The notes beneath the pieces are model-generated. The model searched no databases. It was not told where the DNA came from and saw nothing but the letters and a program-made list of their open reading frames with translations. The position numbers were made by a program, and so were the translations under genes. Positions 58,059 through 63,940 of a stretch of DNA of 64,000 bases are shown piece after piece; the stretch's first letter is position 1, and each line of letters begins with the position of its first letter. The DNA is taken from contig CP130629.1 of the NCBI GenBank assembly GCA_030644725.1, positions 1,233,572-1,297,571 on the forward strand. The letters are read 5' to 3'. This DNA is from Candidatus Electrothrix communis (GTDB lineage: Bacteria > Desulfobacterota > Desulfobulbia > Desulfobulbales > Desulfobulbaceae).

Positions 58059-59150
58059 TCAGGATGAAGCCATCTTGTCAGGCGGGCCAGTTACAAGAAC
58101 GTTTGTGCCCAGATCGTCCAAAACCTGTTGTTCCAACCCGTCTTCCTTTGCCCGCAATCGTGCCAATTTCTCTGGACTGTATTGTATCGGTAATTTACCG
58201 AGGTTGCAGATAGGTTCGCCCGGACTGATGGAGGGCAGACTTGTCATGCCCATCACCACCCCGTTAAAGGGTGCATAAAGCGTATCCTGGCTTTCACCGA
58301 GAAGAGTTGTATTGGTTATTATAGGCTGACCTTTTTTTACGATGTCACCGGGTTTGATATGAAAATCAAGAAATCCCCCCCGCTCCGACCGAATCCATTT
58401 TGATTTCTCAATCACAATCTGATAGGCAGGGCTTTCTATCTCGCCGTCCAGCATGTTCAGTTCACGCAGTACATTTTTTATACCACGAACTTCGGTTTCC
58501 ACAATGCCGGGCTCTACTTTCCATACTTCGCCGCCTTCCATAATAATTGTCGGGCATCCGGCATTGCATGCTTCCCGACGAAAGGAATTTTTCGGGCCTT
58601 TATTGTTCATTATGATTTCAACACCGAAGGCTTCGGCCAGTCGGCGAACTTCAGAGTTTGTCAGGTCACCACGAACTGTCGGGTAGTTGGTTCGCCGGAC
58701 CGATGCTGTATGTAAATCAATACCGTAATCACACCTCTTTACAATCTCGTTAAAGATTGTAAACGCCATACGACTGGCAAGGCTCCCATCAACAGAGCCG
58801 GGAAAGGAACGGTTCAAATCCCGACGATCCGGGAGATAGCGGGAATGGCGCTCAAAGGCGGGTAAATTCAGCACCGGAATTAAGACAAGAGCCCCTCTCT
58901 GAACCTGAAAAGTATCATCCTGAATGAGTTGGCGAATAGCTCCGCAACCATTGATCTCATCACCGTGCAAGGCCCCGGTTACAAACACGACCGGTCCGTC
59001 TTCTAGTGCGCGTCGTACGTGGATTTGAATATCCACTGTCATGCTGCTGTAACTTTCGCCCACAACAAGATGTACATTACGTGATTCACCGGGCTCGATT
59101 TTTTCACCGAACCAATCAAACATCGACTTTCGAGGAGCAGGCCTATTCAT
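58059..59150 (-). CDS. succinylglutamate desuccinylase/aspartoacylase (AstE/AspA)-family hydrolase
   Basis: 363 aa from ATG 59150, which overlaps the rimK stop (ATGAATAG). A longer frame from 59219 runs back through rimK and is less likely. Zinc-hydrolase motifs: VTGALHGDEINGCGAIRQL (H-x-x-E), NRSFPGSVDGSLASRMAF, IDLHTA (His) and PTIIMEGGE (catalytic Glu region). The C-terminal part resembles a lipoyl-like beta domain (FHIKPGDIVKKGQPII). In rimK neighbourhoods such enzymes are thought to remove or trim the amino-acid tags added by the ligase. Confidence 0.85.
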   Translation of the reverse strand: MNRPAPRKSMFDWFGEKIEPGESRNVHLVVGESYSSMTVDIQIHVRRALEDGPVVFVTGALHGDEINGCGAIRQLIQDDTFQVQRGALVLIPVLNLPAFERHSRYLPDRRDLNRSFPGSVDGSLASRMAFTIFNEIVKRCDYGIDLHTASVRRTNYPTVRGDLTNSEVRRLAEAFGVEIIMNNKGPKNSFRREACNAGCPTIIMEGGEVWKVEPGIVETEVRGIKNVLRELNMLDGEIESPAYQIVIEKSKWIRSERGGFLDFHIKPGDIVKKGQPIITNTTLLGESQDTLYAPFNGVVMGMTSLPSISPGEPICNLGKLPIQYSPEKLARLRAKEDGLEQQVLDDLGTNVLVTGPPDKMASS

Positions 59151-60408
59151 GGTCGTTCCCATCTGTCTCTGACGGTATTGCAACAGACTCGATTGTCCCG
59201 GATTCTTTGTAGACTTCATCGGCCACAGGCAGATCGGGTAAGTGCTTAATTTTCGGTTGTCGCTTACGGCGAACCTTCTTCGGCGTCATGTCACGCATCA
59301 ATTCAAGTTTGCCGAAGCAGAGTAGACGATCACCTGCAAATAACTCCCGTTCTGGTTTCGGATTAGGGATGACCTTTGCGTTCCGATGGAGGGTCAGCAC
59401 CACAATATCTTTTTCGCGGAGCCGTGACTCAGTAATAGTTTTTCCTATATACTCAGATCCTTCAGGGATATGAATTTCTGCAACGCCATAGCCGCTGCTC
59501 ACTGTTAACCGTTGCCGAAGATCAATCTCTGGAAAATTCACCTGCGCAGCAATATAGTCAACTATTGATCCGGCAATATCAAGTTGCGTACACCCTTCAA
59601 TTCCCTCTAAACCCGGTGAGGAATTCACTTCCATAATCTGCGGTCCATCTTTCCCTTCAAGAAGATCCACACCCGCCACCCGAAGCCCTAATATCTGCGC
59701 TGCCCGCACAGCCGTCTCGGTGTACAATTCATCAAGCTGCACCGGCTCGGTGATGCCACCTCTATGGACGTTGCTGCGAAATTCCTGTCCCTGCGCGACT
59801 CGTCGCATCGCTCCCACGACCCGATCACCGACAACAAAGGCTCTGATATCTTTCCCCTTGCTTTCCTTGACAAATTTCTGAATAAGAACACTCTGTTTCT
59901 GACTCTGCAAAAGTTCAACGATTCCAGCGGCAGTACTGAGCGAATTCGCCAAGATGACGCCGATCCCCTGCGTCCCTTCAATTAATTTGATGACAACAGG
60001 TGCCCCGCCAACTCGCTCAATTGCTGGCAGGACATCCTTTTTATCTCGGACAAAAGTCGTTTGCGGAATACCGATAGAATGCCGACTGAGTATCTGCAAA
60101 CTCCTGAGTTTATCTCTTGAATTTCCAATACTCGCGGATGAGTTCGCACAAAACACATCCATTTGTTCGAATTGCCGTACAACAGCAGTACCATAATAGG
60201 TGATTGAGGAGCCGATTCTCGGCAAGACGGCATCATATTGAGAAAGGTGTTTTTGGCGAAAATACAGGTCAGGCATGCCCTGGTCCAGATCTATGGCAAA
60301 CTTCAGCGTATTGAGCACCTTAACCTTATGGCCCCGTTGCAGCGCAGCCTCACGAAGTCGGCGTGTGCTGTAACTTTGGCCGTTGCATGAGAGAATAGCG
60401 AGTTTCAT
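59143..60408 (-). CDS. rimK: RimK-family alpha-L-glutamate ligase with C-terminal TrkA-C-like domain
   Basis: 421 aa ATP-grasp ligase. Motifs: NGQSYSTRRLREAAL, LPRIGSSITYYGTAVVRQFE, GGAPVVIKLIEGTQGIGVIL (ATP-binding), VGAMRRVAQGQEFRSNVHRGG and GVDLLEGKDGPQIMEVNSSPGLEGIEG (metal-binding NxSPG). Residues about 320-395 (AEIHIPEGSEYIGKTI, LTLHRNAKVIPNP, LFAGDRLLCFGK) match the RCK_C/TrkA-C ligand-binding domain, a fusion seen in some RimK proteins. RimK adds glutamates to ribosomal protein S6 or other acceptors. It starts 4 bases inside the upstream rimB-like gene. Confidence 0.92.
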   Translation of the reverse strand: MKLAILSCNGQSYSTRRLREAALQRGHKVKVLNTLKFAIDLDQGMPDLYFRQKHLSQYDAVLPRIGSSITYYGTAVVRQFEQMDVFCANSSASIGNSRDKLRSLQILSRHSIGIPQTTFVRDKKDVLPAIERVGGAPVVIKLIEGTQGIGVILANSLSTAAGIVELLQSQKQSVLIQKFVKESKGKDIRAFVVGDRVVGAMRRVAQGQEFRSNVHRGGITEPVQLDELYTETAVRAAQILGLRVAGVDLLEGKDGPQIMEVNSSPGLEGIEGCTQLDIAGSIVDYIAAQVNFPEIDLRQRLTVSSGYGVAEIHIPEGSEYIGKTITESRLREKDIVVLTLHRNAKVIPNPKPERELFAGDRLLCFGKLELMRDMTPKKVRRKRQPKIKHLPDLPVADEVYKESGTIESVAIPSETDGNDHE

Positions 60409-60914
60409 GATTTTCCTTGATTTTGAGGTTCAGAATCTGTTTTTGGGCCTCTATTTACCTTTTTCTTCCGATCCGGTCTACCACCATAATAAGATCTCCC
60501 CCCGTCAACCATAAATCGATCCCTGAATGCTTCACGACCAAGAAGCATCCTGAACCCCATATTATCACGACTTGCAAGAGTCAGTTCCACCTCCCACACT
60601 TGCCCGAGTAACTCTATATCCGCCAAAATGACCGGCCTGATTTTAGCTATTCCATTTGAACTCTTAATAGATCTGAACTCAAGTACTCTGGCTTCTGCGT
60701 CAAGAGTACCCTTGATCGAACGCTGGATAGGGTGAATTTTGAAACGCACCCATTGTTCTCCATCTCGATCAAATGTCTTGAGGTTGACTGCCTGTATCGA
60801 TGAGGAACGTGCTCCGGAATCGACCTTTACTTTAATTTTGTCAACACCGAGACTTGGAAGTTTAACCCACTCCCGCCAACCGATAATCGGCAGCTCAACT
60901 TTTCTTTTTCTCAC
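60405..60914 (-). CDS. RimB-like retropepsin-type protein (DUF785, ATP-dependent zinc protease family)
   Basis: 169 aa. GTG 60914 is the start, with GAGGG 9 bases upstream. IIGWREWVKLPSLGVDKIKVKVDSGARSSSI contains the DSGAR aspartate loop, and MLLGREAFRDRFMVDGGRSYYGGRP is the family tail. These small single-aspartate-fold proteins resemble retroviral aspartic peptidases and accompany RimK in many bacteria, probably processing the poly-glutamate tag. ATGA overlap with rimK shows tight operon packing. Confidence 0.85.
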   Translation of the reverse strand: MRKRKVELPIIGWREWVKLPSLGVDKIKVKVDSGARSSSIQAVNLKTFDRDGEQWVRFKIHPIQRSIKGTLDAEARVLEFRSIKSSNGIAKIRPVILADIELLGQVWEVELTLASRDNMGFRMLLGREAFRDRFMVDGGRSYYGGRPDRKKKVNRGPKTDSEPQNQGKS

Positions 60915-62666: not shown

Positions 62667-62695
62667 TTGACTTGATAATTGCTACCATCTAACAT
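62667..62695 (+). promoter_or_regulatory. possible sigma-70 promoter of the first PASTA-like gene
   Basis: TTGACT (62667), 17-base spacer, TAACAT (62690). An inverted repeat ATCATT/AATGAT at about 62703-62720 lies downstream and could be an operator. The -10 is weak. Confidence 0.45.
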
Positions 62696-62769: not shown

Positions 62770-63141
62770 ATGAGAATAAACAGAAAACTACTTATAACGA
62801 CTGCTATATTAGTATCATGCGCAACATGGTCTCCCAATGCATTCGCCGGATTAGATTTTCTTCCTAAGCCTAATGTTGAGGGATTAACCGTAGAAAAGGC
62901 CACAAAAAAATATGGCCCAGAGTCTGGATACGAACAGCCGATGAGATTTGAAGTAAACACTCAGGTAGGAAGTCCTGACTGCAGGATAATCGCGCCTGAC
63001 TGCAGTAAAGCCTGTCCAAAAGAAAAAATTTATTACCAATCACCCCACTATTACCTGAACAGAGATGGAAGCCGTACTGTAAAGGTGGACATTCTTTTCG
63101 ATGTAAATGATGTCATAACCTCAAGGGAGCCATCCTGCTAA
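62770..63141 (+). CDS. secreted PASTA-like small protein, paralog 1
   Basis: 123 aa from ATG 62770 (AGAGGAG about 8 bases upstream. An in-frame ATG at 62725 lacks one). Signal peptide KLLITTAILVSCATWSPNAFA, cleaved near FAG. The mature part has PNVEGLTVEKATKKYG, a PASTA-like strand-helix motif (VPNVxGLTxxxAxxxL), then a six-cysteine-like region APDCSKACPKEK and a C-terminal Cys. PASTA domains bind peptidoglycan fragments or beta-lactams. Here a single copy in a free secreted protein is unusual. A terminator follows. Confidence 0.7.
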   Translation: MRINRKLLITTAILVSCATWSPNAFAGLDFLPKPNVEGLTVEKATKKYGPESGYEQPMRFEVNTQVGSPDCRIIAPDCSKACPKEKIYYQSPHYYLNRDGSRTVKVDILFDVNDVITSREPSC

Positions 63142-63173
63142 AAAAACGCTAATATAGCGCAACAACAAACTCA

Positions 63174-63203
63174 AAAGGCGGACAGATTTCCGCCTTTCTT
63201 TAT
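63174..63203 (+). terminator. rho-independent terminator after paralog 1
   Basis: AAAGGCGGA (63174-63182) pairs with TCCGCCTTT (63189-63197), followed by CTTTATT. It is nearly the same as the hairpin after paralog 2. Confidence 0.8.
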
Positions 63204-63422
63204 TCCTTCCTTACTCCTCCGCTAGCCGTCTCTCAACGCTCTACTGATATTAATTAATGCCTACGAGAAATCGGTTATAGCAATTCTAATATAGACACCA
63301 TCTTTTAACTCCTCATTTTTCGTTGCCAGAGAGAAAATTATTACTTTTCGTACCAAATGCAACATTCTCTAGACGTAACATAATAATATTAAATATTTTA
63401 TATTTTATATTTTACATTTTAC

Positions 63423-63451
63423 TTGACACCTCTTCCTTCGCCCGTTATTAT
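63423..63451 (+). promoter_or_regulatory. sigma-70 promoter of paralog 2
   Basis: TTGACA (63423-63428), 17 bases, TATTAT (63446-63451): consensus -35, one mismatch in the -10, optimal spacing. Transcription would begin near 63458-63460, 45-50 bases before the start codon. Confidence 0.7.
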
Positions 63452-63461
63452 TTTATTAAGA

Positions 63462-63480
63462 GGTAATCATTATCAATAAT
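63462..63480. promoter_or_regulatory. Fur-box-like site over the transcription start
   Basis: The minus strand reads ATTGATAATGATTACC, containing GATAATGAT of the Fur consensus. It lies immediately downstream of the -10, where a bound repressor would block transcription. Confidence 0.4.
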
Positions 63481-63505
63481 ATTTTCGCCTAAAAAGGAGG
63501 AGAAA

Positions 63506-63874
63506 ATGATTAAATTTAACCTGTTGTTACTAACCATCATGCTGGCATCATCTGGAGTATGGGCTCAAAATTCTTTTGCTGCCTTAGGCCCTGATCCTAT
63601 GCCTAATCTTGTGGGTTTGACGGTAGAAGAGGCTGAAAAAAAATATGGGCCTGAATCCGGATTCGACCATCCACTGCTTTTTGAGGTGAACCGCAGATTA
63701 GGAAATAAAAAATGTGAGATAATAGGACCTGACTGCAGTAAGGCTTGCCCGACAGCAAAGATCTATCACCAATCACCTCACCATTACCTGAACAACGATG
63801 ACAGTCGTACAGTAAGGGTCGATATTTATTTTGATGTCAATCAGGTAACAACTTCATGGGCTCCATCCTGCTGA
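63506..63874 (+). CDS. secreted PASTA-like small protein, paralog 2
   Basis: 122 aa, about 55-60% identical to paralog 1 by eye. AAGGAGG lies 6 bases before the ATG. Signal peptide FNLLLLTIMLASSGVWA. PNLVGLTVEEAEKKYGPESG is the PASTA-like core, then GPDCSKACPTAK, QSPHHYLN and a terminal Cys, as in paralog 1. The repeated cysteines suggest a disulfide-locked periplasmic or extracellular protein. Its promoter and a Fur-like site are visible upstream and a terminator downstream, so the gene is a separate transcription unit that could respond to iron. Confidence 0.72.
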   Translation: MIKFNLLLLTIMLASSGVWAQNSFAALGPDPMPNLVGLTVEEAEKKYGPESGFDHPLLFEVNRRLGNKKCEIIGPDCSKACPTAKIYHQSPHHYLNNDDSRTVRVDIYFDVNQVTTSWAPSC

Positions 63875-63912: not shown

Positions 63913-63940
63913 AAAGGCGGACCGATGTCCGCCTTTTTTT
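63913..63940 (+). terminator. rho-independent terminator after paralog 2
   Basis: AAAGGCGGAC (63913) pairs with GTCCGCCTTT across CGAT and runs into a T tract of seven or more, a strong terminator. Confidence 0.88.

What the first reader, a model, noticed from the sequence alone, without database searches (positions are those of the whole stretch)
62770..63874. Tandem paralogs of secreted single-PASTA-like proteins with iron-type control
Two small exported proteins with a PASTA-like core and conserved cysteines are each flanked by matching terminators. The second has a near-consensus promoter overlapped by a Fur-like site; the first has none visible. Free-standing single PASTA proteins are uncommon, since PASTA repeats usually sit on kinases or PBPs.
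Basis: partly seen in the sequence, partly recalled or inferred. Interest (0 to 1): 0.55.

Follow-up and report, generated by a model that had tools for sequence, protein, structure and literature searches.

The report
Cable-bacterium secreted protein pair, PASTA-like
Two neighbouring genes of a marine cable bacterium encode small, apparently secreted, cysteine-containing proteins of a family seen so far only in that genus; they faintly resemble cell-wall-binding PASTA domains and share a repressor site that may be a peroxide-stress switch rather than an iron switch.

Summary
Mostly confirmed, partly reinterpreted. The tandem genes (62770-63141, 63506-63874) are real, under purifying selection (dN/dS 0.22), with signal peptides by eye and near-identical terminators. 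They belong to a 14-gene family found in 7 of 8 genomes of this cable-bacterium genus (Candidatus Electrothrix) and in 0 of 249 other genomes searched in the order. Two cysteines are invariant in 12 of 12 aligned rows; two more occur together in 7 and are both absent in 5.

PASTA: no member passes Pfam (best 12.5 bits, cut-off 23.2). A profile comparison gives a clear but short similarity (16 columns); the rest is at chance. The fold is unresolved (pLDDT 40 and 42.5).

Feo operons of 8 genomes lack it; all 15 Fur-family proteins found have the PerR-type aspartate; the one beside rubrerythrin has a similar weak dyad at its own promoter. Peroxide-type control is therefore favoured over iron-type, not proven. 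Binding, expression and function are untested.

The parts
62667..62695 (+). promoter-like site of gene 1: TTGACT, 17 nt, TAACAT
   Evidence: 9 of 12; lines up with the promoters of other family members
62673..62687 (+). degenerate Fur/PerR-like dyad TGATAATTGCTACCA between -35 and -10 of gene 1
   Evidence: (11 of 14), p 0.03 in 500 shuffles, 0.045 in 200; same placement as in L012/L013
62757..62763 (+). ribosome-binding site AGAGGAG of gene 1
   Evidence: read from the sequence
62770..63141 (+). gene 1 (W1): 123-aa protein, Cys71, 78, 82, 123 plus Cys17 in the signal region
   Evidence: dN/dS against gene 2 0.224
62770..62847 (+). signal peptide of gene 1, cut likely after NAFA (residue 26); an LVSC lipobox-like motif at 14-17 is an alternative
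   Evidence: by eye; no predictor run
63174..63197 (.). terminator hairpin of gene 1, listed on both strands
63423..63451 (+). promoter-like site of gene 2: TTGACA, 17 nt, TATTAT
   Evidence: 11 of 12
63461..63475 (+). Fur/PerR-like dyad AGGTAATCATTATCA just downstream of the -10 of gene 2
   Evidence: also found by the genome scans
63495..63502 (+). ribosome-binding site AGGAGGAG of gene 2
   Evidence: read from the sequence
63506..63874 (+). gene 2 (W2): 122-aa protein, Cys70, 77, 81, 122
   Evidence: dN/dS against the E. aarhusensis copy 0.217
63506..63580 (+). signal peptide of gene 2, cut likely after NSFA (residue 25)
   Evidence: by eye; no predictor run
63599..63643 (+). PASTA-like motif of gene 2, residues 32-46 (MPNLVGLTVEEAEKK)
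   Evidence: Pfam PF03793 E 0.15; hhalign 25.6 against shuffle maximum 13.9
63913..63936 (+). terminator hairpin of gene 2

Best explanation
A genus-restricted family of small periplasmic proteins in Candidatus Electrothrix. Each protein is exported by a signal peptide (inferred by eye) and folds as a compact helix-plus-strands domain, distantly PASTA-like at its start, with an inserted loop tied by Cys70-Cys81 and, in one subfamily, a second bond Cys77-Cys122 (pairings inferred). Each gene probably forms its own transcription unit with a sigma-70 promoter and a Fur-superfamily operator; the two window genes also have their own terminators. The repressor is most likely one of the two PerR-type proteins of the genus, so peroxide or oxygen exposure (or loss of the metal corepressor) would switch the gene on and fill the envelope with the protein. 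The most likely job is binding in the cell wall or envelope and protecting it when cells enter the oxic zone; this last step is inference. Shown by sequence: genes, family, restriction to the genus among genomes searched, cysteines, the dyad at every promoter, PerR-type residues. Not shown: export, binding, induction, fold, ligand.
For: Family in 7 of 8 genomes of the genus (the miss is 69% complete) and 0 of 249 others in the order (at most 17 candidates scored per genome). Cys70 and Cys81 in 12 of 12 rows; Cys77 and Cys122 together in 7, neither in 5. Dyad at 14 of 14 upstream regions, 11-13 of 14 positions; p 0.000-0.03 for 13 and 0.054 for L016 (500 shuffles). In 11 printed promoters, the hexamer read at a fixed 17 nt after TTGACN starts with TA in 11 of 11 (the spacing was set by my script). 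Regulators: 15 Fur-family proteins in 8 genomes, 15 of 15 with Asp at the PerR D104 position (meaning of that residue from passages of PMC4866751); best solved match of both G000 proteins is PerR 2fe3. The 219-aa one is followed by rubrerythrin (Pfam E 3.5e-31 for the G000 copy) in 6 of 7 loci read, the seventh being cut short. Its own promoter has a dyad in 8 of 8 genomes, p 0-0.065 for the Fur 15-mer and 0-0.03 for the Desulfotalea PerR consensus (orthologs, not independent). Feo: no dyad of 11 or more of 14 in 8 of 8 loci; p 0.46-1.0 at the operon starts I chose by eye. Rodionov 2004 (PMC545781, sections 20 and 29 and passages): scanning with the E. coli Fur profile found no Fur boxes in the delta-proteobacteria studied; the box found there was WTGAAAATNATTTTCAW; Desulfotalea psychrophila, same order, lacks that Fur branch and has PerR consensus GtTAATgATnATcATTAaC, listed with two sites.
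Against: The family dyads fit the Fur 15-mer better than the Desulfotalea PerR 19-mer, whose p is above 0.05 for 7 of 14 promoters; the other delta Fur box reaches p below 0.05 at 3 of 14. The PerR-like gene's own dyad is weak (11-12 of 14). In this genome 50 of 56 near-matches were read, 30 lie inside ORFs, and no peroxide-defence gene was recognised by eye; one intergenic match lies 230 nt upstream of the 146-aa Fur-family gene, but no match of 12 of 14 lies in the 330 nt before its six orthologs. The stricter pattern is not enriched in G000 itself (8 against 8 for the reversed control). The joint loss of two cysteines may be one event. No expression data. Envelope protection has no direct support; the PASTA similarity is short.
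Confidence: 0.4

Rival explanations
1. Iron-type control: a Fur-family protein represses the genes when iron is plentiful, and the protein helps iron handling in the periplasm.
For: The dyad matches the Fur-type 15-mer TGATAATNATTATCA at 11-13 of 14 positions in 14 of 14 upstream regions; most keep a G at position 2, which sets this 15-mer apart from the B. subtilis PerR box TTATAATNATTATAA (box quoted; the rule is recalled).
Against: No Feo region in 8 genomes carries it, nor the other delta Fur box above chance (p 0.21-0.975); 15 of 15 Fur-family proteins found have the PerR-type Asp; the published delta Fur box differs. A PerR-type protein can still respond to iron or manganese as corepressor (recalled).
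Confidence: 0.22
2. A true single-domain PASTA protein that binds peptidoglycan stems in the periplasm (compatible with either kind of control).
For: Local profile match 25.6 against shuffle maxima of 13.9 (150 shuffles) and 15.5 (40 shuffles); global 18.0 against 9.7, with QSP and the last strand in PASTA register; helix then three strands in both low-confidence models.
Against: Pfam cut-off missed by all 12 members and PASTA not reported for any of 4 consensus forms; without the first motif the match is at best equal to the shuffle maximum; with a profile of the 10 longest PASTA domains the global alignment takes another register; an insertion of about 27 residues; pLDDT 40 and 42.5; no PASTA among the 50 Foldseek rows shown of 297.
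Confidence: 0.3
3. A secreted serine-protease inhibitor of the potato inhibitor I (I13) fold with an enlarged disulfide-bonded loop.
For: The start PNLVGLTVEEA resembles PELVGKSVEEA of CI-2; hhalign 16.8 against a maximum of 15.6 in 150 shuffles with a 5-sequence profile; RVDIYFDVN aligns with RVRVFYN, not significantly.
Against: No Pfam PF00280 match; with 8 sequences 15.0 against a shuffle maximum of 16.6 (40 shuffles); global 6.1 against 10.1.
Confidence: 0.08
4. A structural part of the periplasmic conductive fibre or its sheath.
For: Apparently periplasmic, cysteine-bearing, found only in this cable-bacterium genus among 257 genomes of the order.
Against: Fibres also exist in the genus Electronema (start of the abstract of PMC11976967), while no other genus searched has the family (I could not tell whether an Electronema genome was among the unnamed ones); some genomes have a single copy; repressor control does not suit a permanent part.
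Confidence: 0.05

Closest known systems
PASTA domain, Pfam PF03793
   Same: P-x-V-x-G-L-T-x-E-E-A start, helix then strands in low-confidence models, QSP and later strand motifs in the same order, extracytoplasmic
   Different: below the Pfam cut-off, insertion of about 27 residues with the cysteines, free-standing; the one PASTA protein found in this genome is PBP-like (Pfam PBP_dimer and Transpeptidase)
Potato inhibitor I family, PF00280 / MEROPS I13 (CI-2, eglin c)
   Same: similar first 13 residues and, weakly, a last strand
   Different: profile score at the edge of chance, no Pfam match, much longer middle
PerR regulons of Desulfotalea psychrophila and other delta-proteobacteria (PMC545781)
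   Same: AT-rich dyad near the gene start, PerR-type regulator, same order
   Different: the target here is an uncharacterised secreted protein; the dyad fits the Fur-type 15-mer better

Membership tests
PASTA (PF03793) | whole-protein score above the Pfam gathering cut-off of 23.2 bits | tested here: not met
   12.5 bits for gene 2, no hit for gene 1; PASTA reported for 1 of 12 members and 0 of 4 consensus forms
PASTA (PF03793) | profile similarity along the whole domain | tested here: inconclusive
   16 columns strongly above shuffles, remainder at chance
PASTA (PF03793) | alpha-beta-beta-beta fold | tested here: inconclusive
   order of elements fits, but pLDDT 40.0 and 42.5
PASTA (PF03793) | binding of peptidoglycan fragments | not testable with these tools
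   needs protein
Potato inhibitor I (PF00280) | Pfam match | tested here: not met
   no hit for 12 members; eglin c and CI-2 as controls hit
Potato inhibitor I (PF00280) | profile similarity | tested here: inconclusive
   16.8 against 15.6 with 5 sequences, 15.0 against 16.6 with 8
Fur (iron) regulon | operator shared with ferrous iron uptake genes | tested here: not met
   0 of 8 Feo loci with 11 or more of 14
Fur (iron) regulon | a Fur protein with the Fur-type Glu | tested here: not met
   15 of 15 Fur-family proteins found have Asp
Fur (iron) regulon | Fur-type dyad at the promoter | tested here: met
   11-13 of 14 positions in 14 of 14
PerR regulon | PerR-type regulator present | tested here: met
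   both G000 proteins closest to 2fe3, Asp at D104 in 15 of 15
PerR regulon | operator shared with the regulator's own promoter | tested here: inconclusive
   similar but weak dyads in 8 of 8 orthologs
PerR regulon | induction by peroxide | not testable with these tools
   needs transcripts

The most novel reading that the evidence does not exclude
Electrothrix cable bacteria have a private family of disulfide-tied, PASTA-derived periplasmic proteins that a PerR-type switch turns on in oxygen-exposed cells: an envelope programme for the cathodic end of the filament.
Probability: 0.2. Interest if true: 0.6.

Novelty: new variant of a known kind. Interest (0 to 1): 0.4.

Why it matters
Cells of one cable-bacterium filament live in oxic or sulfidic zones while sharing periplasmic wires. 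A genus-wide secreted protein with a conserved, possibly peroxide-type switch would be a simple marker and test case for how the envelope differs between the two ends. It also cautions against reading a Fur-like box as iron control in this order.

Tried and rejected
PASTA by Pfam: missed by all 12 members and by four consensus sequences with and without the insertion. Potato inhibitor I: my own lead from memory, tested and not supported (PF00280 has one weak sub-cut-off hit in 395 genomes of the phylum, none in this genome). I78 inhibitors: 2 weak sub-cut-off hits in 297 genomes, none in this genome. NCBIfam: hits on only 1-2 of 12 members, best E 0.004, taken as chance. PHROGs, phages, plasmids, viral contigs: nothing. 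Solved structures by sequence: 4 hits at E 1 or worse. Foldseek on the second model: 0 of 297 matches at E 0.001 or better.

Regulon: in this genome 50 of 56 near-matches of the Fur 15-mer (56 against 13 for the reversed control) were read; 30 lie inside ORFs, 20 are intergenic, and none of these was recognised by eye as iron uptake. A stricter pattern gave 60 places in 8 genomes against 26 for the reversed control, but 8 against 8 in G000; 12 of the 60 are upstream of family genes. 36 of the 60 were read (one of them a family promoter): 22 inside ORFs, 14 intergenic, no iron or peroxide gene recognised by eye. A Ca. E. aarhusensis protein with E 0.006 to the profile (L031) was taken as chance and not pursued.

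Literature: no paper holds 'cable bacteria' with 'PASTA domain' or with 'small secreted protein'; 2 hold it with 'ferric uptake regulator', neither on this family by title; none holds 'Desulfobulbaceae' with 'Fur box'. Only openly licensed PMC papers were searchable. Papers, what was seen: PMC545781 sections 20 and 29 plus passages with tables; PMC10030654, PMC11247825, PMC11976967, PMC13047784, PMC10580974, PMC4866751 passages; PMC10926707 outline and abstract; the rest search listings only.

Full report
Where it is. The window lies in a single-contig genome of 4.85 Mb, G000. The one named relative found in the genome collection is Candidatus Electrothrix aarhusensis, 82% identical to gene 2; genome G004, in the same genus as G000, has a contig of the same length (69008) with that gene. 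So this is a cable bacterium of the genus Electrothrix; the species is not known.

The genes. Gene 1 (62770-63141, 123 aa) and gene 2 (63506-63874, 122 aa) are 59% identical. By eye each begins with a signal peptide ending NAFA or NSFA. dN/dS of the mature parts is 0.11-0.32 over the eight pairs of family members that gave a value; a ninth was saturated. Upstream lies nhaA on the other strand (Pfam E 1.3e-140); the next gene downstream, beyond the window, encodes 392 aa without a Pfam match.

The family. Searching 57 relatives with gene 2, then 73 genomes of the family and 257 of the order with a 12-row profile, found it in 7 of 8 genomes of the genus, the miss being 69% complete, and in 0 of the other 249 of the order (in one search at most 17 candidates per genome were scored). 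There are 14 genes: three each in G000, G005 and G007, two in G004 (one frameshifted in a run of A, which may be a sequencing error) and one each in G001, G002 and G003. The profile left out the frameshifted copy and one copy that duplicates another. Neighbourhoods were read for 9 regions of six genomes, not for G005. A copy lies between nhaA and the 392-aa gene in G000, G003, G004 and G007 (nhaA confirmed by Pfam in all four; the other neighbour by eye), doubled in G000 and G004. A second type lies convergent to a CO dehydrogenase, ferredoxin and oxidoreductase cluster in G001, G002 and G007 (Pfam for G007; by eye for the others); such a cluster is described as not found elsewhere in the order (PMC11247825, passage). 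A tree of the genes puts these and the third G000 copy in one clade (support 0.996).

Cysteines. Cys70 and Cys81 are invariant in 12 of 12 rows. Cys77 and Cys122 occur together in 7 rows and are both missing in 5. This fits two disulfides, but the five form one clade, so the joint change may be a single event.

PASTA or not. Pfam gives PASTA for gene 2 at E 0.15 over residues 32-46 and nothing for gene 1; no member reaches the cut-off. I built a PASTA profile from 29 domains of related genomes. hhalign gives 25.6 locally, against a maximum of 13.9 in 150 column shuffles, and 18.0 globally against 9.7. The local match is 16 columns long. With that motif removed, the rest scores no better than the shuffle maximum, although AKIYxQSP still aligns in PASTA register; with a profile of the 10 longest domains the global alignment takes another register. 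The potato-inhibitor family, which begins with a similar motif, scored 16.8 against a shuffle maximum of 15.6 with five sequences and 15.0 against 16.6 with eight. Both AlphaFold models show helix, strand, strand, strand, but at pLDDT 40.0 and 42.5, so the fold is open.

The promoter. All 14 upstream regions hold a dyad at 11-13 of the 14 positions of TGATAATNATTATCA. p is 0.000-0.03 for 13 and 0.054 for one in 500 shuffles; a repeat with 200 shuffles gave up to 0.06. In the 11 promoters printed, the hexamer read 17 nt after TTGACN begins with TA in 11 of 11; the spacing was fixed by my script. The dyad follows the -10 in most; in L012, L013 and gene 1 the best match lies between -35 and -10. 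Several promoters are orthologs and not independent.

Which regulator. The genus has 15 Fur-family proteins in 8 genomes, two in each but G004, where one was found. One type is about 219 aa with a second winged-helix domain and is followed by rubrerythrin in 6 of 7 loci read, the seventh being cut short; the other is about 146 aa. The G000 proteins of both types match the solved PerR 2fe3 best (E 1.2e-23 and 1.5e-25). All 15 have Asp where PerR has Asp104 and Fur has Glu (PMC4866751 passages). The promoter of the first type carries a weak similar dyad in 8 of 8 genomes (p 0-0.065), while the Feo operon start, chosen by eye, shows none in 8 of 8 (p 0.46-1.0) and no match of 11 or more of 14 lies anywhere in the 8 Feo loci. 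The other delta-proteobacterial Fur box is not above chance at Feo either (p 0.21-0.975). Earlier work, scanning with the E. coli Fur profile, found no Fur boxes in the delta-proteobacteria studied, described another box, and in Desulfotalea psychrophila, same order, found no member of that Fur branch and the PerR consensus GtTAATgATnATcATTAaC, listed with two sites (PMC545781).

Against this: the family dyads match the Fur 15-mer more consistently than that PerR consensus (7 of 14 have PerR p above 0.05); genome scans did not reveal a peroxide regulon; and the stricter pattern is not enriched in G000 itself (8 against 8).

Conclusion. The best reading is a genus-restricted, apparently periplasmic protein, faintly PASTA-like, under a Fur-superfamily repressor that is probably PerR-type. 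Function in the envelope at the oxic end is a hypothesis.

Noticed in passing
L056 (G000:C1:3947063-3947410 with flanks) and orthologs in the genus: A PerR-type Fur-family protein of about 219 aa with an extra C-terminal winged-helix (ArsR-like) domain, in front of rubrerythrin; an AhpC/TSA gene follows in L128.
   Followed up: partly
L005 4924-5292: The first of two tandem copies in Candidatus Electrothrix aarhusensis is frameshifted in a run of A; real decay or sequencing error.
   Followed up: no
L037 7951-9829: In G003 the neighbouring nhaA reads as two ORFs (294 and 118 aa) around an IS200-like transposase ORF of 142 aa.
   Followed up: partly
L036, L038, L039: The two-cysteine family members lie convergent to a CO dehydrogenase gene cluster.
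   Followed up: partly
62770-62820 (gene 1), L003, L007: Three members have an L-x-S-C lipobox-like motif in the signal region where others have Ser; some may be lipoproteins (by eye).
   Followed up: no
58059-60914: Cluster of AstE/AspA-like, RimK-like and Zn-protease-like genes on the minus strand.
   Followed up: no
L033 7559-8737 (just past the window end): 392-aa neighbour without any Pfam match; its counterpart in G007 (421 aa, L034) has none either.
   Followed up: partly
L156 and L165: In G007 and G005 a dyad GGTAATTATTATC lies 30 nt before a 147-aa gene, a possible further target of the same regulator.
   Followed up: no
L058: A 552-aa frame in G007 with several PASTA matches and no sign by eye of a kinase or PBP part.
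   Followed up: no
L143, L154 and other places: The palindrome GGTAACTGTTACC is listed once in each of 7 of 8 genomes of the genus (not in G001); the two copies read lie inside ORFs.
   Followed up: no
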